DNA of 64,000 nt. Source: Cytobacillus oceanisediminis (GTDB lineage: Bacteria; Bacillota; Bacilli; Bacillales; Cytobacillaceae). Positions 38,701 through 59,380 of the stretch are shown in pieces. The stretch lies in assembly GCF_022811925.1 (NCBI RefSeq), contig NZ_CP065512.1, positions 176,208-240,207 on the forward strand, in the 5' to 3' direction. How positions within the stretch are numbered: position 1 is the stretch's first letter; every line of letters starts with the position of its first letter. Made by a program: the position numbers and the translations under genes. The notes under the pieces were generated by a model, which saw only the letters and a list, made by a program, of their open reading frames with translations, did not search any database and was not told the origin of the DNA.

Positions 38701-41700
38701 GTCGCTTGCCAGAATATCCTTAGAGGTCTTGACCTTTTTATTTGGATTTTCATATAAGGCAAACATGGCATCCCATGGACGGCAATATACTTCAAAGTTT
38801 TCCAAATTGTCATCAAGATGACGGGACATTTCATAATACGCAGCAAGCTGGGCAACAGCCATCTCAAGGTTATGTTTCCAGTTGTAAATCAACTTTTTGG
38901 CTTCACTGACTGACATGCCATTTGAGCTGATGTCAACCTGTGCTATTCCTGCACGGCCGGCTTTGGAAACCATAGGGTTATTGTTTTTATAATGCTTCCA
39001 TCCAGTTGTCTTATCAAGAAATGCCTTCATCATGGTCATAAAGCGTTCTTTCGTCGGCTTTTTATCCGCCTTGTAAAATGCTTTTGCTTTAATGAAGTCC
39101 TGTTTCTTTGGTTTAACAATCTTTTCTTTCTTGATTAGCTGGTCAACCCTCCAGGATACTGTTGAGCCCATGCTGTAATGCATGTCGAAAACCATGGAAT
39201 AGAATTCTTCTGCTGGAGTATAGGAAACTTGTTTGAGGGATTTATCCGCATCTTTCATGTCCCCTTTGCAGTCCTCAATGAAGTTTTTAGCAGAATAATA
39301 TTTGGAGAAGTATTTATCAACGAGGGTATTGAGGTGGTTGTAGATTTTGTCCTCACTTGGTGTTGGCTCGCTTTTAAACTCTTCATAGCTATAATTCGGG
39401 AAAAGTTTTTGCCATTCGGCCTTTGTAGGGAAAGAATAGAATACAGGCGTTCCATCGTCACTGGTCTTCGTCAGGAATGTTTTCAATTCCGGATTTTTAT
39501 AATTAGCCTGCGCAGCTTCCGAAGCCATTTGCTGGCCAGCTGACTGACTAGGATTAGCTTCGCCTTCTTCTTCTTTAGACCAATTAAAAACCCAATTTAG
39601 CGGCTCTACCCCATCTGTCTTTTGCATTTCCTCCAGGATGCCCCAATCGGCTTCTGTTGTATTAAAGAGTTTGTTGATATCCCCGCTGCTAGTATAAGCA
39701 GCAACACCTGCAGCATCAAACATGTTCATCTGATGGCTCTCTCCATACATCTTTTCTACATTTTCACGGAATGTCGTAAGGGTAGAAAAATAGAAGTCCG
39801 GGTCCACATAAATTCCGTTGGTTAAATTTTTATATGTCTTGATTCCGGCATCCAGGTGAGGAAGGATAGCGTTAACCTCTTCATAGGTCGGAAGTTCAAG
39901 GTCGGGATAAACCTCCAATTTTCTCAGCCTAGCTTCAATCATACGGTCATTCGCAAATGCATTCTTATGTGCCTTTAACATTTCCAGGTCCATATGCTTT
40001 GCATTCCCTGGCAAGGCTTTCAGTTCTTCTCTCTGCCGTTGAGTCTTATCAAAGCCGATAGCTGAAATCATAACGTGGAATCTTCCGGGGAAACCAGGGA
40101 CTGTGCTTATTCTTACACTTTGGAACATGATGTGCCTGATGCCGAATAGCTGAGCCAGATCGTTCTTAACGCCAAGGTAGCCATTCGTAATGCCTTGTGC
40201 GTATTGCTTGGCGTATTCATCGGATTTACGGATTAGCCTGCTGAAATCCTGAGCTGCATCTTCGTCCATCTCCAGAACAATATCAAGATACGGATCTCCT
40301 CCACCCAAGTATTGAAGCGTCGGTGCTTCCCCGGCCAATACATGCCCACTGCTGAACTCATTTGAAAAACGGGCATTTACAGAAAGCGGAATAAGGTGTC
40401 CTTTGATTTCGAAATCGTTCATTTTCACACCGAGCTCACTTGCTTCAATAATGCGCATTCTCTTATTGAACTCTTCTTCATATTTATCAGCCGTTTCAAG
40501 CATATTGTCTGCGCCGGAAGCGATTTTCTTTAGGACTTCAAAATTAGCTGCTGTACCCGGGATATAGAAAACTCCCTTATCCTCATTGAAATAGCGTTTG
40601 AAGAAAGATTCCATGGTCCGCTGATTTTCAACACTTTTCATTTTCGCCAGAATGATTATCCCCTGCTTCTGCCGATTGATGTAAGGAGATTCATTGTAAT
40701 CTACCGGAGGAGTTTCATTGGACCTCTCAAAGAAATCCGTCAGGTCATTCCATTCAAATCTTTCTTTATAGAACACCCTGCTCTCATAAGGAATAAAGAT
40801 ATTCTTTTGCTGAGTCAGCTTCTCCCACTCTTCTTTAAAATCATTGTCATACATCTCGGAGAATATTTCCTCACCAGCGATAACTGCATTTTCAGCTGTT
40901 TCACTCTTAATAGGATATTTATCTTTAAGATATTTGACTACATCCCAGAAAAACCCATCTTTCTTGCCGAAATAATCAATGACCGAATAGTCTTTAATAT
41001 TGGCATCCTTATAAACTTGATATTCTCGGAGAAGTTTTTTGGCAGTTTCTGAATCCTGTTCCTTGCTTTGGAATTGAAGGCTCTTCTTCAAATCGATACG
41101 GTGTTTCTCTGGAGAATCCGCATTCTTCATCCAGTTGATGGCTTCCCTTCGCTGCTCCAAAAATTCTTCATCTGCTAGAGTAAAGGACAACTCATTTTTA
41201 ATGGGGCCTTCCAGACGCTTAAAGTAACGGTGTTTTTCTTCACGCTCTACAAGGGCCTGATTATAATACCAACGCATTAAAGGGTAGCTGATAGATTCAT
41301 TAAGGCTGCTATGATCCATTAGATAAGCCTCAGAGTTGAATTCTACAAGTGTCAGCGTAGCTGTAAGAGATTCAGGGAAATTAGGGACAGTTGATACCTC
41401 AATGTCCATCAAGCCGACATCCTGTACACCAATTACCTCATTAATATAATAGTTGTCGATAGGAACGAAAGGTGTTTTGGCAAATTGAGCCAGAAGCGGT
41501 CTTAGCCCATCAACTTCAAGGAAATTCTCTTTATCTCCGGCTTTTCTAGGGATAAGCTTACCGTTAATGTTCTCAATATCATGAAAGTAAAGGTCCATTT
41601 TTAAAGTAGTGAGGGTTTGCCCACGATTGACTAAAACGGATGATTTCGTGCGGAGTGTTTTGACCCGGGAGATATTTGAGGTTTTGTCCACATCAATTGC

Positions 41701-43014
41701 CACTGGTGGAATTGTCAGGATGACATCCCCAATCCTTACTTTTGAATGCAGCTTTAAGTCATCTTCCGTTTGTATCCCTTTAAGGAATTCTTTCACGCGA
41801 TCATCATAAGCTTTGAAGAAATTGTGATTGTTTGGCTTTTCGTCCTCACCATTCGCAAATAGGAGAGTATCTGTATTCAGCTCACTGTCAGGGAGACTGA
41901 CGGGATCTCCTTCTACATTAGGCTCTAAGGTTCTGTCCGGATGGGACATCCCCTGCCGGTTATCATCACCTGAATCAAAGACCTTTATGTTCAACTCGTG
42001 TATCCAGCTGTATGGATTTAAGATGCTTGAGCCTTTAAGGGCATCGTCAAATTCAAAGTTTGCTAATGGAACATGGGTGAACTTCTTTGATTGTTCTACA
42101 AGCATGGATTTGTTTACATGAACAAAGGAACTGCCTCTTTTGATTTTGTCCTTTATGGGTGCAGGGTTTTTCTCAGCGGTAGCATAGAGGTCGCAAATAT
42201 ATCGGTTTCCATAGTAATCCAAGCTCGGCTGATCTCCATCCTTTGCTCGGTCAAAATGAAGGACAACCAATGCAGTTCCGTTCTCGCTGTATTTAAGAAG
42301 TTTTTTATTGTATGCCAAGGCTTCACTGGCCACCTCAAACATGTCTTCTGTTTTTAACCCGTAGATGTCTGCATATCGCTTATTTTTTGATGATTTATAC
42401 TCATCCTTCTTCTCTGGATCATACTCGGCTGCATCAATTCCGTTGTATCGGACTTCGATCTCGGAACCCTCATTGATTCCATATCCGCTGAGAAGGTCCG
42501 TCGTTGAGACAATTGAAGCTCTTATTGTATCGCCATCATGAATTTTCATTACTTTTGCGATAGCAATGTAATCCATAGTGGTAGAAGGAATACTCTCTGT
42601 TTCTGCCATCGATTTGAACATTGAGTTTGCTTCGTTGATGGTTTCCCCCTGGATTTCGGCTTTTGGACCAATAGACAGCGGGGAACTGAACACTTCTTTT
42701 TCATAGCGGTACCGCCCTGCCCGAACCAGGCGCTTAGCTTCAAAACCGCAATCCACATAGACAATTTGTTCACGTATTTTGGTAATTTCCATATCCCTGA
42801 ACTCAGTAAGATGGTGGAATCCTATTTCAACAGGGTACCGGCTTACTTTCTTTTCTATTTCGGACAGGAACAAATGAAAACGGGGGCTCGTGGCCACTTT
42901 GCCATTATTTCCTGCATGAAAAAACGTATATCCATCATCCAGGTAAACACCTACTCGCCATGGTGAGTCTTTGCTCAATCTGGAAAGAGAGGTAATTAAT
43001 ATTTTTTCCTTCAT
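35758..43014 (-). CDS. Giant tail hub-like protein with nuclease-fold domain, 2418 aa
   Basis: ATG at 43014 sits 7 nt after AGAGGTG; an in-frame GTG at 43023 overlaps the SD. Residues about 150-280 form a staphylococcal-nuclease-like domain with D160-T163 (HDGDT), R189, D194 and E197 (VRYNGIDAAE) and R271 near GNRYICDLY, so the catalytic set looks complete. Two copies of a tail-protein motif follow: VSTVPNFPESLTATLTLVEF (about 540-560) and ISTVPGFPGRFHVMISAIGF (about 965-990). Residues about 1335-1440 resemble an SLT domain whose catalytic Glu is replaced. The C-terminal third has hub-like segments (IDIVAQGDGVEL). It precedes the spike genes, as hubs do. It is far larger than any typical hub. 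Role: hub or penetration device, perhaps with DNA or wall processing. Confidence 0.75.
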   Translation of the reverse strand: MKEKILITSLSRLSKDSPWRVGVYLDDGYTFFHAGNNGKVATSPRFHLFLSEIEKKVSRYPVEIGFHHLTEFRDMEITKIREQIVYVDCGFEAKRLVRAGRYRYEKEVFSSPLSIGPKAEIQGETINEANSMFKSMAETESIPSTTMDYIAIAKVMKIHDGDTIRASIVSTTDLLSGYGINEGSEIEVRYNGIDAAEYDPEKKDEYKSSKNKRYADIYGLKTEDMFEVASEALAYNKKLLKYSENGTALVVLHFDRAKDGDQPSLDYYGNRYICDLYATAEKNPAPIKDKIKRGSSFVHVNKSMLVEQSKKFTHVPLANFEFDDALKGSSILNPYSWIHELNIKVFDSGDDNRQGMSHPDRTLEPNVEGDPVSLPDSELNTDTLLFANGEDEKPNNHNFFKAYDDRVKEFLKGIQTEDDLKLHSKVRIGDVILTIPPVAIDVDKTSNISRVKTLRTKSSVLVNRGQTLTTLKMDLYFHDIENINGKLIPRKAGDKENFLEVDGLRPLLAQFAKTPFVPIDNYYINEVIGVQDVGLMDIEVSTVPNFPESLTATLTLVEFNSEAYLMDHSSLNESISYPLMRWYYNQALVEREEKHRYFKRLEGPIKNELSFTLADEEFLEQRREAINWMKNADSPEKHRIDLKKSLQFQSKEQDSETAKKLLREYQVYKDANIKDYSVIDYFGKKDGFFWDVVKYLKDKYPIKSETAENAVIAGEEIFSEMYDNDFKEEWEKLTQQKNIFIPYESRVFYKERFEWNDLTDFFERSNETPPVDYNESPYINRQKQGIIILAKMKSVENQRTMESFFKRYFNEDKGVFYIPGTAANFEVLKKIASGADNMLETADKYEEEFNKRMRIIEASELGVKMNDFEIKGHLIPLSVNARFSNEFSSGHVLAGEAPTLQYLGGGDPYLDIVLEMDEDAAQDFSRLIRKSDEYAKQYAQGITNGYLGVKNDLAQLFGIRHIMFQSVRISTVPGFPGRFHVMISAIGFDKTQRQREELKALPGNAKHMDLEMLKAHKNAFANDRMIEARLRKLEVYPDLELPTYEEVNAILPHLDAGIKTYKNLTNGIYVDPDFYFSTLTTFRENVEKMYGESHQMNMFDAAGVAAYTSSGDINKLFNTTEADWGILEEMQKTDGVEPLNWVFNWSKEEEGEANPSQSAGQQMASEAAQANYKNPELKTFLTKTSDDGTPVFYSFPTKAEWQKLFPNYSYEEFKSEPTPSEDKIYNHLNTLVDKYFSKYYSAKNFIEDCKGDMKDADKSLKQVSYTPAEEFYSMVFDMHYSMGSTVSWRVDQLIKKEKIVKPKKQDFIKAKAFYKADKKPTKERFMTMMKAFLDKTTGWKHYKNNNPMVSKAGRAGIAQVDISSNGMSVSEAKKLIYNWKHNLEMAVAQLAAYYEMSRHLDDNLENFEVYCRPWDAMFALYENPNKKVKTSKDILASDVASGVISRFNHYAQKPFDTASGFNQAIYKKYAGLSKEEKITTGGGKKTDYVEALLELEYYDLKVLKKAGLKVNSDKNGIKKAMKEHLETLSKTQLYDLYLKHLKKLHDLFQHQGTYWEWLKHPLHIEDKNGYLYSYNMASKGYNLYFSAKEMDKAVESSQAASDTRLYNEADPQTLYREMFHDLRRHDQRGRMVRAFPGFQMFIIHEGDYFGKYKFWDNMYGFNAIESIDVHRSRKIAADTAVISMTNVYSNLTTRRTDIDFVDREVKWWDNYIWNEIPQDLIDKKANEHHKTISLETGARIHLRMGYSGNAKDLPVVFNGTITEMEIGDVIDIVAQGDGVELGNVISGDPDDDNDGLFSVTEPRDLICSLMGSKGSWIKDFMNGASDGQLFKKNPLGIMHFGQAWDTTDTTASKPLGNLIWYNDEYGEVAQNIYSSNGSPTFSQWVHPNGERNNIFNDFTWSNLWANKFKIFNPGDEKNVVVKFYNNTVWDIITTVANTSPDYIAAVHPFELRSTLFFGKPYWRCAFEYDSYYQFDESNKTWTRHLTKEARRPYMQHKLYTSHYDIIQNNIKASEDNLYTNVIVNYDGNQTPVLYADADIRYDKHKTRVVEANVVAKFADFYSSEVMATYFGMSSLRDNMKDMYKGNILVLGDPTVKPHDMMFLNDDINDINGTCQVKAVTHHFSAETGFVTSIEPDLLCVNDDQIILETAKWFNSFAASFVAGMATSYFARKGIKNLSSWLRKSPYLPKNVGEWVNTKGLRQALVLVNDGTSKDIQAALDTLDNIIKEKDPVKKKALNDRLKKHFQNAIQNLTKSQGKWGTGTAKTLSRKLVLTSGLKMLTNADDVAKASKNIIGMLRGVASATPIGFILNMGFWIGSEMLFEHYRRYKENLQCVVAMPLTYRGKELTAGINNHAGMVYGDTPGRYDKMFDATLFHDDGEAEFWGNAGIELLNFLSGSGGVYADQEKAKELNELGKGQ

Positions 43015-43039
43015 CCTTTTCACCTCTTGTCTAATAAAA

Positions 43040-43078: not shown

Positions 43079-46000
43079 CTAATATGCGTAACCCTTATTC
43101 ATGGCATTTGCAACCTGATTTTCCAACCACTTGCGGTCAATTTGCTTGGAATTGTCATTTACATTGACGTTTGTAGCCATCTTCATGTTGGACATTGCCA
43201 TTACTTCATTGTTGATCAAAGCGGCGATATCATTACTGCTCATGCGCTGGGCTGATTTAGCATTAATCCTGATATTGAGGTATTCCCCATTATCATTCTG
43301 TGCGACACGGGCTGTCGGAGCACCAAGTGTCTCAGGTGCCACGGGTGCCATTTCCTGCAGACCTTCCGGTGTAGGAGCACCTTTCATAGCTGCATTCGTT
43401 GCCCATAGGGACGCAAATCCAGCTGTTGCCACTCCCAAAACTCCAGCTGCGCTTCCGCTGAATTTTGCCTTTGCCTGTGTGGCTATCTCCGCAAGGGTGT
43501 TGTCCATTTGATCACGGATGGTTCTATAAACAGGGACTTCGCTGTTTGGAAGTATACCTGGATTTCGGCTTTGGCCATTCATGATTTCCATTACATTTCC
43601 CGAATCCTCAAAGCGGTCCGTAATGTTGTTTAGCCTGCTGGTATGTGCTCTGAAAACGGCCTTTTCAAGACTTTCTCTGTGGGCATCCATGGATTCATAT
43701 CCAAGTTCTTTGGCGACGCGGTTCAGGTAGCCTGCCCCTTCCGTTCCTGGAAGGTGCTCACCTGTCCGAACTACATTGGATAGTTTATCGAATCCAATAC
43801 CCTGGGAAGCAAACATCATTAAGCTTGACTGCCGGTTTCCGTTAACACCCATGCTGCCGAAAGTCTCTTCTGCCCCGCCTAACAACTCTAAAGCTGTTTT
43901 CATAAAGCTTTCTCGGGATCCTCTATAGACCTCTCCATCCCCGATTTCAAGGAACGGCTTATTCTTGAAGAGTCCTCTATCTGCTAAATCAGCGGCAGCC
44001 TGACCATAATCAAGGTTATTGCTCGGATTATTAACCTTGTCAATCATAGCGTAGAGGTCTTTCATGACTTCTTCAGAAGTTAGCGCAGACCCTTCCACTT
44101 TTTTGGCTGAAATGGATTTCTGTGAGTATTCACGCAAAAATTCATCGACAATTGCTGTTTCACGAACATAATCATCTTGGGTGTATTTAAGGGCACCCTC
44201 TGCCTGGTTGAAAAGCTTATATTTTGTCTCAGACAGAGACATAAAGGCAGCTGACATTCTCATACGGGTGTTATCTACACTTCCGATAGTAGTAGACGTC
44301 GAGCGGGCTAGAACGGACTTTTCATGCTCTTCTAATGCAAGATTTGTGAATTCACCATTCTTCGCAATGCCCCAATTGCCATACTGGCCGGTTTTTGCAA
44401 CTGCTTCCCTGATTCTCTCCCTTGCCTCGTCCCCATGGAGACTGCCAAGAGTGAGGTTTTCTGAACCGGAGAAGAATTGCTCCGAGGCAGTAACAATGTC
44501 TTTATGAGTGACTTCAAGCCCTGTGATTTTTGCCAAACTGGATCGGAAGCTTGCTTCATGGCCACTCATGATTTCTGCAGCTTGATTCAGGTTTTTCGCC
44601 GTTTCCTTTCGGTTTAATCTGGCCATATCGTTAAGGACAGCCGCTCTGCGTTCATCATCTTTAATGCCATATTGTGATAGGATGACTGCGATGTTATCTC
44701 CGTCGAAGTCACCGGATATACGCTCAGCCATACCTGGCAATCCGACAACCTGACCGTTGCCAACCGCTTCACTGATCTTAAGCTTGAGTGACTGGGTTGT
44801 ACCTGTATCAATGGAAGGGTAACGGATGGCAGTTGAATACGTATCATGCTTATTCCAATTCTTCAGTACCCAATCGGTCATCTCATCAGACTTAATGTTG
44901 GATGTGTCTACGCCCCATGATTTTGCGATGTTTTCAGCATTGTCCCCAACCAGGTTCCGGACATCATCCACATTCATGTAAATGTGGCCTTCCCTTGCCA
45001 TCCCTTTGTTCACCCACTTACCATCTTCCTTTTGGTAGGCAAGCAGCGGGTTTACGCCGCCAAATTGGTATTGGGAGGAATTATCGAGCCTTCTGGCCAT
45101 AATTCTGGACATGCCCTCTTTTGAAGTCGAGTCACCCAGCGTTTGAATAAGCCTGGATGCTTCCATATTGATTTCATCTGCAAGTGATGATTTAGCTTTT
45201 GCAACTTGCTCTTCCGAAAACTTGTTTGTAACAAAAGTGGAATTATACTCATCCATCTTTCTGGCGATTTTAGCATAATGCCCTTTAACAGAATCAAGGA
45301 ACTGCACTTTGTCATCCTGCCTCATATCGCTTGGGAGCTTCATGGAATCTACATCAATAAGCGGGATATACTGATTGGCTGCAAATTCAGGGAGCTTCAT
45401 ATAAGCTGTGCCATTATTCCTTAAGAGGAACTTTTGAAGCTTTTCTCCCTGACCTCCGGCTTTGAGGTTGTAGTTCACTGCTCCGGCATTAAGGACCGTT
45501 TTTGCATAATCTCCTACAGTAAACATCTGATTATGAGCGGATTTCATTGGAATCTGTTCGAATGAATCCTTGCTGACATGAAGAACACCATCTTTTAATT
45601 GTGCATTCACGTCCGTCATGATTCCCATTCCATCGCTCGTATAATCAATAACAGCATCTCCCGCTTTCGGTGTCCATCCTTTATCATGATTAAGGGCAGC
45701 TTTCACGGTTTCACTGAAGACTTTCTGCTGCGCTTTTATCTCCCCTGTAGTACCTGCACCGTAAACTGTCTCACGAAGCCAATCTACATGGGCGGATGAT
45801 TCACCAGGCTTAGCCAATTTTGTGGAGCGGTAAGAACGGTCGAGCATTTCAATTTCCTTAATCGTGATCTTGGCATTATTCAATCCACCCTGACGATTCC
45901 ATACATCATGCGCCATTGTCAATTCCCCGAAGACTTCACGGTTCAGGCCAAGATTTTTCCGCCAATTAGCTGAAAATTGCTCCCTAGCCTCATAACTTAA

Positions 46001-49000
46001 TTCCTGGCCGCTCAATCCAAAGTCGGAAGCAACCGTATACTGGCCATTTTTCTCAAGCTTTGTTCTAATTCCAAGGGTTTTTTCAACATCCTCATAATAC
46101 TTGCTGAGGTGGCCAGCGGCTGAAGCACCGTATTTTTCTCGAATGACGGTATCGTAACCACGGATTAATCCGGCAAGGTCATTTACCCCCTTCTTTTCAC
46201 CAAGATGGGAAATGACTTGTTCAATGCCCTTTTGTCCGTACAAATCACTCATGACTTCACCGAGCATCGGCACCATAGTTGCACGGAAACCGCTCTCGGT
46301 CACAGCTTTGAAGCCATGTCCTGTTCTTCGTTCCCTTCCAAGAACCAGAGATCTCGAGGAAGGATCATCGGCATTAAACCCTAGAAGGGTTACCTTATCA
46401 CCCTTGCGGAAACGTTTTTCATCAACGATAGGAGCTGTGACCATGCTATTGATGGTATATTCCCCAACAGTCAGCTTGCCGTTCTTATCAAGCATGCTGC
46501 TGATATCAATTTCAAGTGGTTTGTCGAATTTAATGCCTTTTGTCTTCCAATCTTCTATTCCCTGCTTTTCGGCTTGTTTTTTAATAGCTTCCTCAATCGT
46601 ATTGTTGAAGGACACACTGTCCGCTTTCACATTGATACGAACTTCGTCTATACCATCAAAGGCAGACATGAGTCTATAATCCATGAATGCAAGACCTTCA
46701 CTCGTTGAAAGCATGCCCATATCAAGAGCTTTGGTCATTTGGCGTTTCATGTATTCAGGGGCATCTGATTTATCAATCATTTGCTTATATTCATTTACTT
46801 TTTTAGCGTCTTTTAGCTTAAGAGCAATTTCTTCATCTGTCATGTAACCGGTTTTCATGGTTAAACCGCGCCACTCATTATTTCTTTCAAGAGCTTCATG
46901 TGCAGCAGAAGAAATGAAACTGTTCTTGTAGCGATAATCTCCATCTTTTCCCGCCTTTTTTAAAGCGGCTGAGGCATGCTCCTGGCTAAGGGCACGATAG
47001 TTGATGGTCTTATGCGGGTTCTCTACAGAATCCGAATAATAATTACCAAGGGCCATGTAAGTACGGGCATCCGCACCAGCGGTCCCAATATAACCCATGC
47101 CAGCAGCACGGTTATTCATACCAAACATGCTTCCTTTCAGCCCAACTCCCGGAATGGATTTAGCTGTTTCCATCAAACCTCCGGCTATAGCAAGTCCTTT
47201 TGCCCGGTTGTCCATGGCATCAAAGAAAGAGACACCCTTTTCTTTAGCAATCGAGGCAATGTCATCGACCGTTTTATTAAAACCAAGTCTGCTTTGATTT
47301 CGCCTATACCACAATTCAGCAAAACCTGTGACATCCCAGCGGCTTGAGCGCACTTCCCCCGCAATTGCCGATCTCAGTTCAAACATATTGGCATCTTCAA
47401 AACCAAGCTTCCTATTTGCGCTTGATGGAACAGGGTCCACTTGTCTGCTAACGCGGTAGCGAAGCCCTTGCTGAATTTCCACAAATGGGTTTCTCCGGCC
47501 TGTCCCCTGAGCTTTCAGGGACAACTCCTTTGCCTTTTTTGAATAATCCAATATCATGTTTAAGGCATCGGTAACGGTTGTGCTATGGTAAGCTTCTGAA
47601 TTTCTAACTCCTGAACGAATGACAGCTGCTTTGCGGCTTGAGCCCCACCTAACTTTTTGGTCAGCATCAAAGCTTGGAAGTTCGATTGAAGCCAACCTTG
47701 GATTTCGGACAATCTCCTCATACGTTTTCAATTCACTCATGTTCATGCCGCTTTTCTTATCGGCCAATATCAGGAGAGGGTTGCCACCTTCCATAAATCT
47801 GATTTGCGTATTGAAATCGTTGCTGTATGCAGAAATAATTTTCCCCACCAGGTCTTCATATTTCGCTGCCATGCTTCCGGCTTTTTTGACGGTGCTTGCA
47901 TCGTTCATGCTATGAAGCCCGAAGTTCTTTTGGAACAGGGTATGAATATGTTCATCCTGCTTCTGTAGAAATTCTTTAAGCTTTGAATTGCCATTGATGG
48001 CATCTTTGGCTTTTGCATGGGATTGAGAATAATTAATGCTGTCCTGTACAACCTCTGGCAAGTCAGCCATAAGAGATCTAATAGCTTTGGACCGCTTATC
48101 CGTTACCCTGTCGGTTACTTCACGGACAAAGCTGCTGTTTCCTTTCGTCTCAACGTGATCACGAACAAAATTGGCCATGCTCGTAAGCGCTGTTTCAATC
48201 TTATTGCCGGAATGCACTTCCTGGACCATCCCCTCTGCAATGGCCCTTACTTTTTTAGCCTCTTGGCCTTCTGCAGAGAATCCAAAGTTATTGATAATTA
48301 AGCTTGAGAGTTCGTCAATCCTTGCAATTTTATAAGTCTTTTCAGGATTTCCAACCCGTTCTCCCCTTCTTCCACCATTAATAAGGCTTCTGAAAGAATT
48401 CTTGATTTGTTCAGTATTCTTCGCATTAAAGACCATTTCATCATCTTTGCCAAAAGTAAAATTGAAGAATTTACTGCCTTCTGCAGTTAAAGAGGCTTTA
48501 TTATCCCCAAGCTGATCGAAACGATTTTTTATATGACGGAGAGCTATGGACTTTTGGTCATCCGATAAAGCCGTGTGGTTCAATCTCTTCATAACATTTT
48601 CCCAAACTTCTTTCTCTCCCTCTAGACGGTTTACCAGATGGGGGAACTTCATGGCCAGTTCATCACTGCCGCCCCTGTTCAGTATATGTGTCTTCCAGTC
48701 AAAATCCTTACCTGCATTTCCAGCACTGTTTAAATGACCATACAGCTCATTCATCTTTTTAAAGCCGTTTTGGTCAAACATATTTTCATATTCTCTGAAG
48801 GCATGGTCCTGCAGCTTAATGTTCCTAAGCTGCTTTGTCGCTTCATTATTCATTGGAAGGAATGCACCGTGAATCTGCTGAGCAAGCCCGGCTTCCGTTT
48901 CGGAGAACATCAGGATGCTTTTGCCTGTTATGTCCTTTGAATCAAGTCTTACCCCAAAACCTTTTTGGTCTGAGTTGGGAAGTAGAACGTCCTTAAGAAA

Positions 49001-50329
49001 TTCCTTCACAAAAAAACGTTCATTAGATGGAAGAGAGGTGTCAAGATTTGACCAGCGTGCCTCTATCCTATCTCCATTCATTCTTCCGACCAGTGTGTGC
49101 TTTTGTTTAACCGGATCAAACATGCCACTTTGGAACGAAAAGACTTCCTGTCCAACCTGAAGCGGATTGGTCTTTATGGATGAAGGGGAAAAGGCGTAGG
49201 TTTGGGTCCGCTTAGCTTCTTCGATAAATCCCTGGATGTGTTTGTTTGTGAATCCTGCTAATTCGATATTCGCCTGAATATCATCAGCAGCTAAGTGATA
49301 GAGATAAGAGGGCAGTTTTCCTTTTCCCGCCTGCTTTCCGCTCTTAATATCACCTTTTCCTAATAAATACTGGTGGATATGTTCCTGCCTTAGACTGGCA
49401 CCGGTTAAAGAATAAGGATTTTTTGTTGTAGCGGAATAAGCGTGGTAGAAATCGAGGGAATTTTTAGAGGCTGTTTCAAGAAATCTTTTCGTGCTCTTGT
49501 TTTTAACGGTGCTCATAAGCGCTGGCAAGTCATAGGCATGGATATTGTAGCCGCCTAATAGCGAACCTGTCTTCTTAACATGACCTTCAAAAATGGACAT
49601 AGCTTGGCTCAATTTCGTCCCTTTGGAATAGAGGTTTTCAAGCCCCATCTCAATTTCCTCAATCGTCTTTCTTGTAAAGGCAGCTCCTGCTGAAGGCACC
49701 CTTTTATGTTCCAATAAGGAGGTGTAAGCTTTCCCGTCAAACTGGGCAGTTTTAAAGTGGTTGACATTTGAATATTTGGCCAAGTCCAGCAAAGTACGGT
49801 GCATATCCTGCGAGACCCCCATCATCGGGTTCTGCTTCAATAGCTGGATCTGGTCCTTCATCCGCTGGTATTCTTTCTTACCTGGAGCTATTGCCATAGA
49901 GACAATATTCTCCTTCGATTTGACGAATTCTCCTTTACTGAACCGTGTTCCTCCAAAGCTAAGCTCGGTAACGGCGAAAAGGTCAATGCCTTTTCCGACC
50001 CTAAGATGTTCAGGAGTTCCAAGTGCTTCTATATCAAAGAAAGCAACATTCTGATTGGATTTAAGTTTCATAAATGGGTTGAGTGCCTGCTGTGCGTTTA
50101 CGTTAAAGCTGTTTGGTGTCCTGGCAGACTCCCATATGTCCAAGGTCTTCGTTCGGTGTCCTTCACTAAGATTGTTATAGAGGGCAGCAAGAGGCTCCTG
50201 TCTTTCCCTAGCGGCTCTTCGGGCTTCCTCATTTTGTATCTTCATGTCATAGGAGCCATCCGCTGAATCATAAACAGGATACAAAGTTCTGTTTTTGGGC
50301 TCTACTCTTTCAATATCGGCTTTAGCCAT
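43079..50329 (-). CDS. Giant virion protein: DEDDh exonuclease plus two-barrel RNA polymerase-like core, 2416 aa
   Basis: Start at ATG 50329, 5 nt after AGGAGGG; an in-frame ATG ten codons upstream lies in a hairpin and lacks an SD. Residues 99-350 show the DEDDh exonuclease set: D99/E101 (FFDIEALG), N262/D267 (GYNIHAYDLPAL), H345/D350 (HLAADD). Residues about 1308-1365 resemble the first double-psi barrel of RNA polymerases: GDK with K1312, GHGFK with K1341, then RATMVPMLGEVMSDLYGQ, comparable to GDK...HGNKG...NPLGVPSRMNVGQ of RpoB. Then come R1836-x-P1838, DFDGD at 1874-1878, IGSVDN at 2015-2020 and AEGALKYTQ at 2043-2051, as in the QDE-1/YonO/crAss-like family. The likely role is a virion-carried RNA polymerase injected with DNA. 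The motif reading is direct; the activity is inference. Confidence 0.8.
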   Translation of the reverse strand: MAKADIERVEPKNRTLYPVYDSADGSYDMKIQNEEARRAARERQEPLAALYNNLSEGHRTKTLDIWESARTPNSFNVNAQQALNPFMKLKSNQNVAFFDIEALGTPEHLRVGKGIDLFAVTELSFGGTRFSKGEFVKSKENIVSMAIAPGKKEYQRMKDQIQLLKQNPMMGVSQDMHRTLLDLAKYSNVNHFKTAQFDGKAYTSLLEHKRVPSAGAAFTRKTIEEIEMGLENLYSKGTKLSQAMSIFEGHVKKTGSLLGGYNIHAYDLPALMSTVKNKSTKRFLETASKNSLDFYHAYSATTKNPYSLTGASLRQEHIHQYLLGKGDIKSGKQAGKGKLPSYLYHLAADDIQANIELAGFTNKHIQGFIEEAKRTQTYAFSPSSIKTNPLQVGQEVFSFQSGMFDPVKQKHTLVGRMNGDRIEARWSNLDTSLPSNERFFVKEFLKDVLLPNSDQKGFGVRLDSKDITGKSILMFSETEAGLAQQIHGAFLPMNNEATKQLRNIKLQDHAFREYENMFDQNGFKKMNELYGHLNSAGNAGKDFDWKTHILNRGGSDELAMKFPHLVNRLEGEKEVWENVMKRLNHTALSDDQKSIALRHIKNRFDQLGDNKASLTAEGSKFFNFTFGKDDEMVFNAKNTEQIKNSFRSLINGGRRGERVGNPEKTYKIARIDELSSLIINNFGFSAEGQEAKKVRAIAEGMVQEVHSGNKIETALTSMANFVRDHVETKGNSSFVREVTDRVTDKRSKAIRSLMADLPEVVQDSINYSQSHAKAKDAINGNSKLKEFLQKQDEHIHTLFQKNFGLHSMNDASTVKKAGSMAAKYEDLVGKIISAYSNDFNTQIRFMEGGNPLLILADKKSGMNMSELKTYEEIVRNPRLASIELPSFDADQKVRWGSSRKAAVIRSGVRNSEAYHSTTVTDALNMILDYSKKAKELSLKAQGTGRRNPFVEIQQGLRYRVSRQVDPVPSSANRKLGFEDANMFELRSAIAGEVRSSRWDVTGFAELWYRRNQSRLGFNKTVDDIASIAKEKGVSFFDAMDNRAKGLAIAGGLMETAKSIPGVGLKGSMFGMNNRAAGMGYIGTAGADARTYMALGNYYSDSVENPHKTINYRALSQEHASAALKKAGKDGDYRYKNSFISSAAHEALERNNEWRGLTMKTGYMTDEEIALKLKDAKKVNEYKQMIDKSDAPEYMKRQMTKALDMGMLSTSEGLAFMDYRLMSAFDGIDEVRINVKADSVSFNNTIEEAIKKQAEKQGIEDWKTKGIKFDKPLEIDISSMLDKNGKLTVGEYTINSMVTAPIVDEKRFRKGDKVTLLGFNADDPSSRSLVLGRERRTGHGFKAVTESGFRATMVPMLGEVMSDLYGQKGIEQVISHLGEKKGVNDLAGLIRGYDTVIREKYGASAAGHLSKYYEDVEKTLGIRTKLEKNGQYTVASDFGLSGQELSYEAREQFSANWRKNLGLNREVFGELTMAHDVWNRQGGLNNAKITIKEIEMLDRSYRSTKLAKPGESSAHVDWLRETVYGAGTTGEIKAQQKVFSETVKAALNHDKGWTPKAGDAVIDYTSDGMGIMTDVNAQLKDGVLHVSKDSFEQIPMKSAHNQMFTVGDYAKTVLNAGAVNYNLKAGGQGEKLQKFLLRNNGTAYMKLPEFAANQYIPLIDVDSMKLPSDMRQDDKVQFLDSVKGHYAKIARKMDEYNSTFVTNKFSEEQVAKAKSSLADEINMEASRLIQTLGDSTSKEGMSRIMARRLDNSSQYQFGGVNPLLAYQKEDGKWVNKGMAREGHIYMNVDDVRNLVGDNAENIAKSWGVDTSNIKSDEMTDWVLKNWNKHDTYSTAIRYPSIDTGTTQSLKLKISEAVGNGQVVGLPGMAERISGDFDGDNIAVILSQYGIKDDERRAAVLNDMARLNRKETAKNLNQAAEIMSGHEASFRSSLAKITGLEVTHKDIVTASEQFFSGSENLTLGSLHGDEARERIREAVAKTGQYGNWGIAKNGEFTNLALEEHEKSVLARSTSTTIGSVDNTRMRMSAAFMSLSETKYKLFNQAEGALKYTQDDYVRETAIVDEFLREYSQKSISAKKVEGSALTSEEVMKDLYAMIDKVNNPSNNLDYGQAAADLADRGLFKNKPFLEIGDGEVYRGSRESFMKTALELLGGAEETFGSMGVNGNRQSSLMMFASQGIGFDKLSNVVRTGEHLPGTEGAGYLNRVAKELGYESMDAHRESLEKAVFRAHTSRLNNITDRFEDSGNVMEIMNGQSRNPGILPNSEVPVYRTIRDQMDNTLAEIATQAKAKFSGSAAGVLGVATAGFASLWATNAAMKGAPTPEGLQEMAPVAPETLGAPTARVAQNDNGEYLNIRINAKSAQRMSSNDIAALINNEVMAMSNMKMATNVNVNDNSKQIDRKWLENQVANAMNKGYAY

Positions 50330-50340
50330 AATATCCCTCC

Positions 50341-50379
50341 TAAAAATAAAGGCGCCCATCCTTAAGAAGAGTGAGCGCC
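50341..50379 (-). terminator. Hairpin between the first two giant genes
   Basis: The minus strand reads GGCGCTCA ... TGGGCGCC (plus 50351-50379) with a 13-nt loop, followed by TTTATTTTTA and then the SD of the 2416-aa gene. It would reduce or shape downstream expression. Confidence 0.7.
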
Positions 50380-50386
50380 GCGGTAT

Positions 50387-53300
50387 TTAGAATAATGAAT
50401 GGACAGATTCATTAATGGTGTCTAATACATCTTTGTGAACGTCCCGCATGACGTTAATGGAGGTTTTCACTCCACCTGGACCATTTCCAAAGTTTCTTGT
50501 AAGCTGGACATCAACATCTGATAGTCCGGCACCCTGCAGGACTTCACGGATTCTTCCGACATCGATCAAACTGCTGAGTGAGTTCATTGGAATGGCTTTC
50601 TCGCCTTGCCTGTCAGCTCGGTCCTGGTCTTTTTGCCAGTAGCCAGAGTTTGTCGGATTAACTCCCTCTTTTCTCATAACCTTGATTTTTATATCATCAA
50701 GATTGACACCAGCATTCCAGCCAGACCAATTTTCTTCCGGAAGGTAATGGGTCTTGAAATAACTGTCGATGTCTTCTCTGCTATCTACATCCATGCCCCA
50801 TGATCCTTGGAGGATTCTTTTTATGTCTTTCGGGACATACTTCAGAATCTCCTTTCTTTCCTTCGCACTTGTCGTTTCAAGGAAACGAGGAACATACTCC
50901 CTCTCTTTCGGAGTCAGGGCTCTCATTAGCGCAGTTCTATCAGCGGCTGAACCATCCATGCCATAAAGCGTACTTTCATATTCTTTTCTGTATTGGATGG
51001 CTAATGCGGTATATTTGCCTGCCTGATAGGCTTCCTTATCGGAATCAATCATGTCAATTCCGCTGGAAAGGTCATCAATTTTTGTTTCTACGGCTTCTAA
51101 GTCACCATAACCTGTTTTTTTCGCCAACGACAAGAGTTTTTTCTGATCGGTTAAAAAACGTTTTAACCCCTTGTTTCTCCTGCCCTTTTCCTCGGCTTCG
51201 TCGAAGAATTCATTAACATCGACACCTTCTTCTGCCATGGCGAGCTTTCGGGTCTTTTCATAAAGTCCGCGGTATTTTACATACTTAAGCCGGTCAAAAT
51301 ATTCATTGATTTCCCTTTCCGTCTCCCGCTCTTTCGGTATCCACACCCCATCTGCACCTGGAATAAAGCCTTCAACGGTTTCATCAAATACCCGGAGAGA
51401 AGAAAGGCCGGCACCAATAGCAAAACCTCCAACCCTGCCTAAACCAGCCATTTTCTTTGATTTACCCCAAAGATGCCCGATTGCAGCCAATTCCGCCCCA
51501 GCCAGGAGCGGATTCTGAGAAGCTACTGTGTTCAACATCGGCTTAATCCATGCCTGGTATGGCTCCGTCCAAGGACGCCAATCTGAACCATAAACCTGAT
51601 CGCGCCTGTAGCTTTCAATTGGTGTTCGGACCTGGAGGAATTTATCCGCTAATACACCGACAAATGGAACTTTCGGCAGGATATCATGCGTCAGCGCCTC
51701 CATGTATTTTCCGACTGTTATCATGTCTCTTGAATAGATGGCATTGGTTGCGGCTGAGCTTCCATTATCCTTTATCTGTACAGGGTTCTTCCATGTCCGG
51801 TTGGCAAGGATCGCGTTTAGGGATTGGCCCTTATTGGTCTCAAACCAGAAGCGCCCCTCCTCATTTTTATTCGCATATACCACTGCAGACATGGTTTCAT
51901 AGGTATCCTGGTTGTAGCGGTCTGCAGGATTTGCAGATATGCCAATTTCCAGTTTTTCTCCCGGCTTAATGAATTGTCCTAACCAATCAATGGCATCCTG
52001 ATTGTCCTTTTTCGTTAATTTCACACCGGCAAGACGAATAGGAGAATCAAATTCCCTGACCATAAAGGTATTGGCATCGACAATCTTCGTTACTGTTACG
52101 CTCTTCTTCTCTATTTCAGCATTGGAGAATTTTTTATCGTACCACCTCATGGTGTCTTCCTTGCTTCGCACCTGGTCGATGATCTCATCGTATTCTTTCT
52201 CCATGTCCGGAGTCATGCCGCCTGATTGACGGAGCAGGGATACTTCATGCTTTGCTACTTTATATTGGTCGGAGTCTGGGTCAATATCTGCTAGAATCCG
52301 GAAGCGGTCAAATATTCCGTATTGACCTGTCCCGTCTGGGTGAAGATTGTAAAACCTTTCATATGCCTCTCCAGGAAGTCTCATTTCACCTTGCTTGATT
52401 TTTACATATGGATCACCATGGAGGAAGTCAACTGAAGATTCAATGCCCGGCAGCCAGTCTGGCATGGTATTTCGTATTGGAGAATAATAGTTTTTGTTAG
52501 GGTCACGCGGAACATAACGACGGCCAATCTCCGAAAGTGCTCCACCCATACCGCCAAGGCTCATGTCCCAGAAAGCGCGGTTAGGAGAAGTCATCAAACT
52601 GGAGGAGGCCAGGGTAGTGCCACGCCATGATTCTTCGTAGCCCATACCAGTTTTGGTCAAGAAACCATAAATACCGGATAATTCCGAAGCACTGTAGAAT
52701 GAATCCAGCGCCATGCCTTTTAAACTATCAAGTCTTTCAATATCCCCAATAGAGCCTTCAAGCTGCTTATTATTGAGCTTAAGCATGGAGGTCAATGAAG
52801 CTGTCTTTGTTCCTTTTCCTTGAAGTGCAAGTTCGTAGTTTTGGTATGCTAGCAGCTGTTTGATCTCCTCAGAACTTGCACCTGAACCTGCTCCAACGGC
52901 ACCATAGCCTGTTCCATATCCTCCAGAACCAGTTGCTCCTGGAGTCTTGTATGCAGCTGTCAGGAAGTTTCCATAGTTTATGACGCCAGCTCCGGCACCA
53001 TGAGTAGGTCCGCTTCCGCTCATTCCGTTAATAGGATCAATAGGATTTATCCCGCCCCAGGTTCCTTGGCTGCCATATTTATCATAGGTGGTTATGCCAC
53101 CGGATTGGGAGACTCCCACATACGCGCCTTCTGTTGCAGGATTGCGCTGCTGGTCAATATAATCATTTATGGCTGCAAGATACTCCCTATGTGCACTCTT
53201 CAGACCATCATGTTCTCTTCTTGGCTTAAGAATTCTTCCAACTGTACCATCAATCAAATTACCGACAAGCGGAATGTTTTGAATTTCGCTAAAACCGCCA

Positions 53301-56300
53301 GTAACGGCGTATGGTCTGTCTGCTTCGTGCTTCTTCTCATAATGATAAGGGTCTGTTATGAAATGCCTGATTGGAGCAAGAGGATTTGTTAATGTTGGCA
53401 TCCAATGATTGGACCAGTATTCGCTTTCGCTTCCATACATGGTGTCGGTGAATTTGTAATCTGACTTTAACTGGCGATACCAGTTTGGTCGGTAATACTC
53501 AATTCCGCTACCTGCCCATGGAGTAGGAGAACCAACGCCCCAGTATCTATTCTTACGTACTGGATCCTCTCCGCTTTCATAGTAATCCCTTACCTGTTCG
53601 GCACTTCGGAAGTCCGTAAACATGCCAAATGTCATGAAGTCGAGCTGCTTAACACCAACCCACTCATTCATTTGGTCAAATCCGGCATTCTGGAAAACTC
53701 TTGACCAAGGGCGCATTGCCTTGTTGATGCCAAGTAAGTCTTTGGCCATTGCAATGGTCTCATGTGTATTCACATAGGCATCTGCAGCGGTATCACTGAT
53801 CGTGTCTCCTGTTAAGCCATCGAAGTAAACAGCTTGCTGATAAGCCATATAAGGCATAGCGATCCTGCGGAGATATTGGTTTCCTATGATGCTTTGGAAA
53901 GAACCAAGATTTTGCCTTGATAACCCAAGCCCAAAGTTTGTGAATTGGTTATCTAATCGCTCTGCCAGCCCATACATAATAGCTGTTGTAGTCGTGACAT
54001 TTTCTAAGCTGTCGCCATTTGCACGCCTTCCTGCGAATAATTCCCTCGCAGCAACCTTTCCGGCAGAAAGCACATTGGACACAGCATCCCGCGCAAACAT
54101 TTCTGCATTAATCGCCACATCCCAAGCATCGTCTACTGGACGTGTAAGGAGACCAAAATTGATTTGGGAAAGCTGCTGCTTAACCTGGTCAGCCATTTGG
54201 GATTTTCTCATAATGATGAAGTCGGCACCATTTACTGCAGGTGTTTTAGGCTCAGGAGCCCTTCCCCACTTTGGCTGGGCTCTTAGAATACCTTCCTGAA
54301 GGTCAAATCCAAGAGCGGTCAGTTCTGGGGAACCGGCATACATCATTGCTGTTTCATCGAAAGCTGTAGCGGGCCCGTTGAAACGGAGCACATCGTCAAG
54401 GAAGGTTTTTGCTTCATAAGGACGCAGTTTTTCCTCAAATATGTTTTCATAGCTTTGAAGGTCTGTTAGAAGTTCAAGGTCTTTGGCTGCCTTAACATCG
54501 GCATCAGAAATAACACCTTTTTCCCTGGCATCGATCAGATACGCTAAAGAACTTCTCCTTCGCTCCCCGCTCTTTGCCAGTTCAGGAGCGAAATCAACCG
54601 CTTCGTTGTCTAATGCCCTAAGTGCATATTGATGAAAGGCCCTCCTGATATTATCTGCAGCCGGAGTAAGTGTTTCATCTTCCCCAAGGAATGGAACCAT
54701 CATTGCAAGCGGGCTTGGCAGTTTTCTTTGAACGGCTACGTCCCTTGAGGACATTGTGCCTTCTGGATCATCGATATAAGCTTTTGCCCATTTCTTTATT
54801 GCGTTAACGGATGGGTCCTTTACAATAGCAGATTCCCGTTCTGCTAAGCTATTGTAGTGGGAGGAGCGACTAAGCTCCTTATAAAGGGAAAGGTTTGAAT
54901 TGCTGTCAAACTCCTTATTGAAGGCAACCAGGGCTTCTACCAAGTAACTGTCATCAGACAAGCGGGAGAAGTCAAAGGATTCCCCGTTTACTTTTACGCT
55001 TCCCAATACTCTGTTCACATGAGGTGCAAGCACTTCTGCTGCTTCTCTGTTTAACCCGGTAGCACTTCTTTCAATTCCTGAACGGAGGATTCCATAAACG
55101 TCCCTAACCCTATCCGCCTGTTCTTCAGGTCTTGCAAGCTGAAGGTCATAAGCAAGGCTTCTTAACGCATTCGGACCATAATTAGGATCTGACAGCTTAT
55201 TCCATGCCTTTTTATAGGTAGTTGCATGACTGTCACCCTCTTGGTGGCCAATATCGAAAGCTTTTTTAAGCCAACTACGATCATCCGTTTTTTCGAGCTC
55301 ACTGTAGTTGATCATGTTTTTGTGCATACGGGAGAATGCGCCAAACTGAGGGGCGATGTATAGATTTTCATCAATTAGCTGCAGACCACCCTGTTCGGTA
55401 AAGCGGAATACATTTCCCCCAGTATAGAAGTGGCTGCTGTTATTAAGAGGATTCCTAATAGCGCCTTCCTGAGTGGCTTTTGATACATCTTCAAAGGTCT
55501 GGCCATTTAAATTTCTAAGAAATCCCTGTGTAGTACCTACATTAAGGACATGGAGCCCTTCCTTCATTTTTCCGGAGCGGAATGCCTGCCACGGGGTTAG
55601 GTCAAGGGGGTTGATGTTTATAAATGGAACCTTCCATGATTCCTGGGCAAAATCAAGGGCATTCCCAATCCCTTCCCTTAAATGCCGGTTATCCAGCACT
55701 TCCCCCGTCCCTTTGTGGGACAGCAGATAAGGGTCAATGACCATATCATTAAAATCAAAGTTGATTCCTTTTTGTCTTAAGAGGTTGTTTAAGTCCTTAT
55801 CATAGCGATTCCGATCCAGGAATTTTTGCATTTCCTTCGTTACATCGACTGTTACCTTATTGTTCTTGTAATCTATATCGTCGATAAGTAACCCATGCTG
55901 GCGCTTTCTTGCTTCATCCCAGTTAATGGCCTCACTTACTTTTACAGGGTTAAACCCCTTGCCTTTAAGAGCTTTTCCAAGAAGGGAAGTGGATTCCACA
56001 GCCTGCTTAATAAATCCATAAGCCGCTCCACTTTCCATTCCCTTTGCAATCCTTGAGATATCTCCTTTATGCTTTGCAAAAAGCTTAGGTGCAGAATCCG
56101 AGAAATCCTGAATGGTATCGTGAAGGGTTTTCTGGAAAGTATCTCTTATGGTTTTATCCTGAAAAGAGATTTTGTGCTTGTATTTTCCTTCCTCAAGCTG
56201 CTTAACAAAATCGGAAACGTGCTTTGAAGGAGAGTGGAAGACATCTCCTTTAGTGGTAGAATGGTAATCTGCAAGGGCAGATAAGACTCTGTCTCCCCCG

Positions 56301-57966: not shown

Positions 57967-58740
57967 TTACATAGGGACTTGAATATTGCCGGAGAGGTCT
58001 TTGGCAATAAAAGAGTAGATTTCCTGTACGGGGTTGCCGGACGGGTCGATTCTCGTAGATAATCCAGTCAGCTGTACACCGATAATGGATTGTGCTGTTT
58101 GGAAGCTGTTGATTCTCGAAATATCGGGGGCTTGTCCGTAGGTAATGAGGATGTTGAATCCTTGGTCTCTAAGGGCATGGTTTTTCTCATTGGACTGCAC
58201 CCCATAGAAGAAGGAATCGGTTTTGCGGCTATTAATCAAATCGCTGGAAGAGCTTTTTGCTCCCCATATGGCATTCTCGTAATCGTCCGCTAATGCCTGA
58301 AAGTTACTGATAACAGATTCAACGGAGGTGTTCTTCTGTGCTGCCTTGTCCTTAGTTCCATTAAAGTCATTAAGGTTAAACCATTCTGGGTTATTTCCAC
58401 CTTGCTTGGAACTTAACCTATCAACTATGGTTTGTAAATACCCTGCTTCTTTAAAGTTGATAGAAAATTGACCTTGTACGAAACGATTTCCCCTGGCCAC
58501 CTTATCCCAGGTATAAGAGGCATATCCATAGACGGGAGCAACCTGCTCCTGTAGTCCAAATTCAATTTCAACAATCTCATCTACCCAAGTATCTCCAAAG
58601 TAGATGCGGATGTCCGTCCCGGAATAATAACGGGAGTATTTTTGCTTTCCGGGTGCCATGCTCCCTGCTGACTTGGGACTCTTATTCCCAATTCCAATAT
58701 TGTTAAGGTCCACTGTTGAAAAGCTATCGCCGCTGCTCAT
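57967..58740 (-). CDS. Tube-fold virion protein, 257 aa
   Basis: SD AAGGAGGG, ATG. The segments GTDIRIYFGDTWVDEIVEIE, QVAPVYGYASYTWDKVARG and FVQGQFSINFKEAGYL match the strand layout of tail tube proteins, in which a GYAS-type turn is followed by a long strand pair. It carries a central helical insertion (about residues 110-190). It is third in a row of tube-like genes. It could cap the tube, form a distinct tube segment, or join the tube to the baseplate. Confidence 0.65.
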   Translation of the reverse strand: MSSGDSFSTVDLNNIGIGNKSPKSAGSMAPGKQKYSRYYSGTDIRIYFGDTWVDEIVEIEFGLQEQVAPVYGYASYTWDKVARGNRFVQGQFSINFKEAGYLQTIVDRLSSKQGGNNPEWFNLNDFNGTKDKAAQKNTSVESVISNFQALADDYENAIWGAKSSSSDLINSRKTDSFFYGVQSNEKNHALRDQGFNILITYGQAPDISRINSFQTAQSIIGVQLTGLSTRIDPSGNPVQEIYSFIAKDLSGNIQVPM

Positions 58741-58754
58741 GATGTCCCTCCTTC

Positions 58755-59273: not shown

Positions 59274-59340
59274 ATTCTCCCGCCTTTCTTATAATATAGA
59301 AGGAACATAACCACTTAACGGGCTATATATCTAGTAAAAA

Positions 59341-59367: not shown

Positions 59368-59380
59368 CTTCTGCTGATGA

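What the first reader, a model, noticed from the sequence alone, without database searches (positions are those of the whole stretch)
43079..47000. RNA polymerase-like two-barrel core inside a giant tail-cluster protein
The protein shows, in order, a lysine-bearing segment like the RpoB-side double-psi barrel (GDK at K1312, GHGFK at K1341, then RATMVPMLGEVMSDLYGQ), R1836-x-P1838, the metal-binding DFDGD at 1874-1878, and IGSVDN ... AEGALKYTQ (2015-2051). That order and those residues are the hallmarks of the QDE-1/YonO/crAss-like single-chain RNA polymerases. The gene lies in the tail cluster, which suggests that it is packaged and injected to transcribe early genes. Virion RNA polymerases of this fold are known in crAss-like podophages; one in a contractile-tailed phage of Bacillota would be notable and perhaps undescribed. 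DxDGD also occurs in calcium loops, but here the surrounding motifs fit the polymerase.
Basis: partly seen in the sequence, partly recalled or inferred. Interest (0 to 1): 0.93.

Follow-up and report, generated by a model that had tools for sequence, protein, structure and literature searches.

The report
Phage tail polymerase with fused exonuclease
A giant tail-cluster protein of a Bacillus-type jumbo phage carries an RNA-polymerase-type two-barrel catalytic core fused to a 3'-5' exonuclease-type domain, which suggests that the phage injects its own polymerase with its DNA.

Summary
The 2426-aa ORF (43079-50359, minus) has no Pfam/PHROG call itself, but 14 of 20 scanned relatives match Pfam RNA_pol_Rpb1_2 (E<=0.1), two shown above cut-off. 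K1351, R1359, R1846-x-P1848 and DxDGD (1884-1888) are invariant in 33 of 33 aligned sequences; two further relatives lack R-x-P and DxDGD. A model of residues 960-2140 (pLDDT 78) finds only RNA polymerase or transcription-complex chains in the 50 PDB rows shown; QDE-1's aligned range spans both barrels. Missed: an N-terminal DEDDh exonuclease domain (residues ~97-379) and a second two-barrel polymerase on the same 240-kb contig, a candidate non-virion RNAP; 8 of 8 plasmid records with the second enzyme also carry the first. The gene lies between a tape-measure-sized gene and baseplate genes. Most likely: a virion polymerase injected to transcribe early genes; packaging, activity and RNA-versus-DNA product are untested. 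Tail-borne two-barrel RNAPs are known (P23-45); the exonuclease fusion and this lineage appear undescribed in the papers I could search.

The parts
43079..50359 (-). Giant tail-cluster ORF, 2426 aa (P0001): N-terminal DEDDh exonuclease domain + two-barrel polymerase + conserved C-terminal tail
49223..50071 (-). DEDDh 3'-5' exonuclease domain, residues about 97-379
50027..50035 (-). Exo motif I, D109-x-E111
   Evidence: 32 of 32 sequences that have the region
49529..49546 (-). Exo motif II, N272 ... D277
   Evidence: D277 32 of 32, N272 31 of 32
49280..49297 (-). Exo motif III, H355-x4-D360
   Evidence: 32 of 32
43940..47482 (-). Two-barrel polymerase module as modelled, residues 960-2140
   Evidence: AF2 pLDDT 78.4, pTM 0.73; Foldseek and VIA-align rows shown are RNAP or transcription-complex chains
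46277..46309 (-). DPBB-B basic pair: K1351-x5-G1357-x-R1359-x-T1361
   Evidence: 33 of 33; same spacing as host RpoB GDKMAGRHGNK
44816..44824 (-). R1846-x-P1848
   Evidence: 33 of 33
44696..44710 (-). DFDGD 1884-1888, DPBB-A metal triad
   Evidence: D-x-D-G-D 33 of 33; absent in P0012 and P0014
44264..44287 (-). IGSVDNTR 2025-2032 (bridge-helix region, by analogy)
   Evidence: G2026, D2029, R2032 33 of 33
44102..44125 (-). SQKSISAK 2079-2086
   Evidence: S2079, Q2080, I2083, S2084, K2086 33 of 33
43082..43375 (-). Conserved C-terminal tail, residues 2329-2426, role unknown; kept also in the copies without polymerase motifs
50387..56821 (-). Upstream 2144-aa gene in the tape-measure slot (tape-measure role inferred from position and length)
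   Evidence: no PHROG or Pfam family at E<=0.1; a gene of 5.9-6.5 kb in the same place in pAD3 and in a B. licheniformis and a Paenibacillus plasmid
35758..43023 (-). Downstream 2421-aa tail/endolysin-type gene
   Evidence: phrog_20474 'endolysin' E 1.3e-195
60037..61746 (-). Tail sheath gene (a second sheath-like gene at 62423-63910)
   Evidence: phrog_16991 E 9.1e-51; phrog_23 E 3.8e-5
57967..59977 (-). Three genes in the tail-tube position
   Evidence: PHROGs calls them phrog_9206 'major head protein'; the three genes in this position in KLEB27-3 are annotated tail tube
29438..30238 (-). Baseplate wedge gene
   Evidence: phrog_6 E 5.7e-24

Best explanation
The ORF encodes a bifunctional tail protein. 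Its C-terminal half is a single-chain two-barrel (double-psi beta-barrel) polymerase, most likely a DNA-dependent RNA polymerase; its N-terminal part is a DEDDh 3'-5' exonuclease. It is built into or beside the tail tube together with the neighbouring tape-measure-sized protein, enters the cell with the first DNA, and transcribes early phage genes without host RNAP. One likely early target is the operon of a second two-barrel polymerase on the same element, which would take over as the non-virion RNAP. Shown by computation: fold, hallmark residues, exonuclease fold and residues, tail-cluster position, second polymerase gene. Inferred: RNA (not DNA) synthesis, packaging, injection, early-gene role. 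The exonuclease is inferred to have a job of its own at entry (trimming nucleic-acid 3' ends of phage, host or transcript), since it is kept in relatives that lost the polymerase motifs.
Against: P0001 itself gets no RNAP call from Pfam or PHROGs, the precomputed Pfam column is empty for its 12 close relatives, and a profile search of PDB sequences finds no RNAP. Whole-chain TM-scores against PDB chains are low (TMq 0.09-0.17 in the rows shown), so the match is to the core, not the whole module. Two of 34 database relatives have lost DxDGD while keeping an open frame and the exonuclease, and the Moorella phage gene has an exonuclease-like region but no DxDGD in the parts read, so the polymerase is not needed in every lineage. 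KLEB27-3 has no P0039-like gene but two annotated sigma factors, so the two-polymerase scheme is not universal. No repeated promoter was found on the contig. No proteomic or enzymatic data were seen.
Confidence: 0.75

Rival explanations
1. It is a two-barrel DNA polymerase with its own proofreading exonuclease, working like archaeal PolD: it makes or repairs DNA at the ends of the incoming genome instead of transcribing.
For: Two-barrel core plus a 3'-5' exonuclease is the PolD combination (passages of PMC6355029). DEDDh exonucleases are common proofreaders of DNA polymerases (established knowledge), and the domain matches Pol III epsilon. The exonuclease residues are kept in 32 of 32 polymerase-bearing sequences that have the region.
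Against: The structure and profile hits shown are to RNAPs, QDE-1 included. PolD's exonuclease is a PDE/Mre11-like subunit, not DEDDh. The element encodes its own DNA polymerase (phrog_405) and a primase. Exonuclease kept where the polymerase motifs are lost argues against pure proofreading.
Confidence: 0.12
2. It is a tail protein whose polymerase module is a relic: the fold is kept for structure but no synthesis takes place.
For: P0012 and P0014 lost DxDGD and R-x-P but keep frame and exonuclease residues, so the rest of the protein has a polymerase-independent role.
Against: In P0001 and the 32 other members of A3 all the catalytic residues named are intact although identity to P0001 falls to 20%; without selection the triad, R-x-P and the basic pair would not be among the 53 invariant positions of a 2400-aa protein.
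Confidence: 0.06
3. DxDGD is a calcium-loop or chance match in an ordinary tape-measure or baseplate protein.
For: DxDGD alone appears in 725 of 20,000 shuffles of this protein.
Against: R-x-P plus DxDGD at the right spacing appears in 17 of 20,000; Pfam RNAP hits in relatives; fold match; invariance.
Confidence: 0.02

Closest known systems
Thermus phage P23-45 gp96, tape-measure-fused virion RNAP, with its non-virion partner gp64 (PMC10770324; Results section read)
   Same: Single-chain two-barrel RNAP in a giant tail-cluster protein, with a second single-chain two-barrel RNAP elsewhere in the genome.
   Different: [quoted passage not shown] Here the RNAP is the C-terminal half of a separate 2426-aa protein next to a tape-measure-sized gene, in a cluster with tail sheath genes, with an N-terminal exonuclease domain.
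crAss-like phage phi14:2 gp66 virion RNAP (PMC7886860 passages and section 7 part 1; primary paper not held, otherwise recalled)
   Same: Giant single-chain two-barrel RNAP, virion-borne in crAss-like phages.
   Different: Different phage group and hosts (Bacteroidetes); there in a transcription block, here in the tail block. Relationship not resolved here.
YonO of SPbeta and the YonO-like enzyme of Bacillus phage 0305phi8-36 (PMC5467207 and PMC7824862, passages)
   Same: Single-chain two-barrel RNAP of Bacillus phages with aspartate triad.
   Different: YonO is about 100 kDa and lacks proofreading cleavage per PMC5467207. I compared no YonO sequence here; 0305phi8-36 was not in the collections under the accession tried.
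AR9/phiKZ multi-subunit virion and non-virion RNAPs (PMC13282480, PMC7824862 passages)
   Same: Jumbo phages with two phage RNAPs; the AR9 nvRNAP core is the best PDB hit of the model.
   Different: Multi-subunit there, one chain here.
QDE-1 / eukaryotic RNAi polymerases
   Different: Not a phage protein; no exonuclease domain in QDE-1 (recalled).
Archaeal PolD (PMC6355029 passages)
   Same: Two-barrel polymerase working with a 3'-5' exonuclease.
   Different: DNA polymerase with a PDE-type exonuclease in a separate subunit.

Membership tests
Two-barrel (double-psi beta-barrel) RNA polymerase superfamily | DxDGD metal triad in DPBB-A preceded by R-x-P | tested here: met
   33 of 33 in A3; 3 of 3 examined in the third branch; not in P0012, P0014
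Two-barrel (double-psi beta-barrel) RNA polymerase superfamily | Two basic residues contributed by DPBB-B | tested here: met
   K1351 and R1359, 33 of 33; spacing K-x5-G-x-[K/R] as in host RpoB. Assigned by spacing and conservation, not by measured distance. In the third branch R1359 is K in 3 of 3 and K1351 is not cleanly aligned
Two-barrel (double-psi beta-barrel) RNA polymerase superfamily | Two-barrel fold | tested here: met
   AF2 model pLDDT 78.4; 29 PDB matches at E<=1e-3, all 50 rows shown are RNAP or transcription-complex chains; QDE-1 range model 31-1145. The ten-residue block with DFDGD has pLDDT 71; barrel geometry was not inspected
Two-barrel (double-psi beta-barrel) RNA polymerase superfamily | Curated profile match | tested here: met
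   in relatives only: PF00623 above cut-off in P0031 and P0033, E<=0.1 in 14 of 20 scanned; not in P0001 itself
Two-barrel (double-psi beta-barrel) RNA polymerase superfamily | NTP-dependent RNA synthesis | not testable with these tools
   needs purified protein
Virion RNA polymerase | Present in the particle | not testable with these tools
   tail-cluster position and the depositors' label 'structural protein' on the KLEB27-3 homologue are indirect; no paper naming that phage was found (one search listed none on it)
[quoted passage not shown]
   RNAP module lies within residues 960-2140 of a 2426-aa protein; the tape-measure-sized gene is separate
crAss gp66-like virion RNAP | Sequence or close structural relation to gp66 | tested here: inconclusive
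   no gp66 entry recognised among the rows shown; absence from the list does not exclude it
AR9/phiKZ multi-subunit RNAP | beta and beta' functions split over several chains | tested here: not met
   both parts in one 2426-aa chain
DEDDh exonuclease superfamily | D-x-E, D, H-x4-D residues in the DnaQ fold | tested here: met
   [not shown]
DEDDh exonuclease superfamily | 3'-5' exonuclease activity | not testable with these tools
   needs assay
PolD | Mre11/PDE-type exonuclease subunit | tested here: not met
   exonuclease domain here is DEDDh

The most novel reading that the evidence does not exclude
A two-barrel polymerase that carries its own DEDDh 3'-5' exonuclease in the same chain and is injected with the phage genome: either an RNA polymerase with a dedicated DnaQ-type nuclease, or a PolD-like DNA polymerase that evolved independently. 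The exonuclease would act together with the polymerase (editing or end-processing at the moment of DNA entry) in a lineage of jumbo phage-plasmids that runs a two-RNAP relay.
Probability: 0.3. Interest if true: 0.88.

Novelty: new variant of a known kind. Interest (0 to 1): 0.74.

Why it matters
If true, it extends tail-borne two-barrel RNAPs from P23-45 to sheath-bearing Bacillota jumbo phages that persist as ~200-250 kb plasmids, and it joins this polymerase to a DnaQ-type exonuclease, a combination I did not meet in the papers I could read. It makes two open questions testable: how such a large enzyme passes a contractile tail, and whether a nuclease edits or clears 3' ends during phage entry. 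The paired second polymerase gives a ready system for studying a phage RNAP relay in Bacillus.

Tried and rejected
Sequence search of PDB with the family profile: no RNAP, only a marginal DNA polymerase delta exonuclease stretch, E 3.1; with P0039: nothing. Profile-profile comparison of the P0039 family with the P0001 family: no significant match, so a recent duplication is not supported. PolD and gp66 were not recognised among the rows shown; this excludes nothing. Genome-contig scan with A1: no confirmed relative. First viral-contig scan with P0001 alone: none; with A2: 4 loci. Promoters: no 14-mer repeated five or more times on the contig; sigma-70-like sites upstream of P0039 no more than in shuffles. 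A first alignment of regions upstream of P0039-like genes was faulty: for L024 and L025 I took the wrong side of the gene. Redone with the right strands, it shows one strongly conserved block in 5 of 5 elements; it has no covariation support as an RNA structure and the part searched for occurs only once on C2, so I do not call it a promoter. Transmembrane segments: none at Kyte-Doolittle 1.5 over 19 residues in P0001, P0002, P0003. Rfam on the window: nothing at E<=0.01. Pfam RdRP in the other records: below cut-off in three (G001-G003), none in G004 and KLEB27-3; the 14 control genomes rang once, B. subtilis, below cut-off. Rejected: calcium-loop coincidence (see rivals).

Rows dropped before counts. 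From A3 and A5: P0004 (the window's own copy) and P0012, P0014 (no DxDGD); A6 also lacks P0022, whose N-terminal motifs are missing. Pfam scan of A4: 20 of 22 KLEB27-3-like proteins (P0024, P0027 left out for size); scores of individual members were seen for P0031, P0033, P0035, P0037 only. A8: P0039 plus 17 of 25 non-own relatives. The 12 close relatives P0005-P0016 were not rescanned with Pfam. Third branch: three genes examined of the seven records.
Full report
WHAT IS THERE. The window is G000:C2:176208-240207, one end of a 240,207-base contig in a two-contig, 5.58-Mb bacterial genome. C2 encodes a major head protein, a portal protein, a weak terminase match, DNA polymerase pieces and a primase and, in the window, two tail-sheath-like genes, three genes in the tail-tube position (PHROGs calls them 'major head protein'; KLEB27-3's are annotated tail tube), a baseplate wedge gene and cell-wall hydrolase matches. 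A relative, plasmid pAD3 of Bacillus velezensis (220 kb, circular), has a similar tail order plus MCP and portal genes. I read C2 as a jumbo phage kept as a plasmid (inference). Only 1 of 193 genomes searched in the taxonomic family, the window's own, carries P0001-like, P0039-like or KLEB27-3-like proteins, as expected of an accessory element.

THE PROTEIN. The ORF 43079-50359 (minus) gives 2426 aa. Pfam and PHROGs name nothing in it. Database relatives: 12 besides the own copy from a search with P0001 (38-68% identity over the part aligned), 22 from a search with the KLEB27-3 homologue (one is nearly identical to it), and a third, more distant branch on ~200-230 kb plasmids of B. licheniformis, B. 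paralicheniformis, B. halotolerans and Paenibacillus. The only phage-collection hit to P0001 is Bacillus phage vB_BauM_KLEB27-3 gp034, 24% identity over 97%, labelled 'structural protein'.

SECOND POLYMERASE. C2:19283-23521 (+), outside the window, encodes P0039, 1412 aa, with Pfam RdRP (the family that includes QDE-1, recalled) at 31.8 bits against a cut-off of 23.8. In 18 of 18 aligned sequences (P0039 plus 17 relatives) R775, P777, D824, D826, G827, D828, K590, K612, D990 and K993 are invariant; of four relatives scanned alone none matched RdRP at E<=0.1. The B. licheniformis counterpart also passes the cut-off, 24.5 bits. All 8 plasmid records with a P0039-like gene also have a P0001-like gene; several are near-identical. 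Among the five other records with P0001-like genes, three have it; the 129-kb record G004 and KLEB27-3 do not. KLEB27-3 instead has two annotated sigma factors. A block of about 100 bases upstream of this gene or operon is strongly conserved in 5 of 5 elements; RNA structure is not supported by covariation. It is a candidate control site, perhaps for the virion polymerase, but this is untested.

HOW IT PROBABLY WORKS. By analogy with P23-45, where a tape-measure-fused RNAP transcribes pre-early genes including the gene of a second RNAP (PMC10770324, Results section read), P0001 would ride in the tail, enter with the first DNA and start early transcription, including the P0039 operon. Shown: fold, residues, gene order, second enzyme. 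Inferred: everything about packaging, injection, promoters and product.

WHAT IS KNOWN. [quoted passage not shown] AR9 encodes two multi-subunit RNAPs (cited title in PMC13282480; its contractile tail is recalled). I found no description of this family or of an exonuclease fusion in my searches, which cover only open-licence papers, most of them seen as listings only; two searches returned no paper at all. The gp66 structure paper was not held; what I say of gp66 comes from PMC7886860 (passages and part 1 of section 7) or recall.

VERDICT. A new variant of a known kind: a tail-cluster two-barrel polymerase with a fused DEDDh exonuclease domain, in a lineage of Bacillota jumbo phage-plasmids. 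Two-barrel polymerase fold: about 0.95 sure; RNA rather than DNA product about 0.85; virion-borne about 0.75.

Noticed in passing
G000:C2:19283-23521 (+), L018:5283-9521, outside the window: Second single-chain two-barrel polymerase, 1412 aa, Pfam RdRP above cut-off; candidate non-virion RNAP; a Dda-like helicase gene lies shortly downstream.
   Followed up: yes
L018:5240-5300 (+) = C2:19240-19300: Twister-P1 ribozyme match at the 5' end of the second polymerase gene, E 6.5e-12, 57.8 bits, below the gathering score of 67.2; it overlaps the predicted start, so translation may begin later.
   Followed up: partly
L030:37927-37981 (+), plasmid pAD3: Hammerhead type III ribozyme match (40.6 bits, E 7.5e-7, below gathering 48.5) upstream of the equivalent gene: a different ribozyme class in a comparable place. 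None found in L024-L026 at E<=0.01.
   Followed up: partly
L023:about 830-935, L024 and L025 (- strand), L026, L030:about 37320-37415: Block of about 100 bases (TCCTGACTT ... TATATAGG ... TTTTT ... CGCAAGGTGGTATATATGGGT ... GGTGGACTTTCGATGCCCACCCC) strongly conserved in 5 of 5 elements upstream of the second polymerase gene or operon; no covariation support for an RNA structure. Function unknown.
   Followed up: partly
P0012, P0014 (database proteins, 2083 and 2082 aa): Relatives with the R-x-P and DxDGD region deleted or changed but open frame and exonuclease residues intact.
   Followed up: partly
L033:6487-13843, Moorella phage MTATph1: Tail-cluster gene with an exonuclease-like region, no DxDGD in the parts read; it appears interrupted by an integrase-type transposase plus an ATPase gene that looks like an IS21-type pair.
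   Followed up: partly
L009:10265-11764 and 12974-14890: DNA polymerase gene (phrog_405) in two pieces 1.2 kb apart; KLEB27-3 has two DNA polymerase III alpha genes on either side of an HNH endonuclease gene.
   Followed up: no
window:35758-43023 and 50387-56821: Thermonuclease-like stretches in both giant neighbours by eye; only the first has a weak PHROG endonuclease match, E 0.0065.
   Followed up: no
OM634661.1 (KLEB27-3): Two annotated sigma factors (gp089, gp210) and no P0039-like polymerase found.
   Followed up: partly
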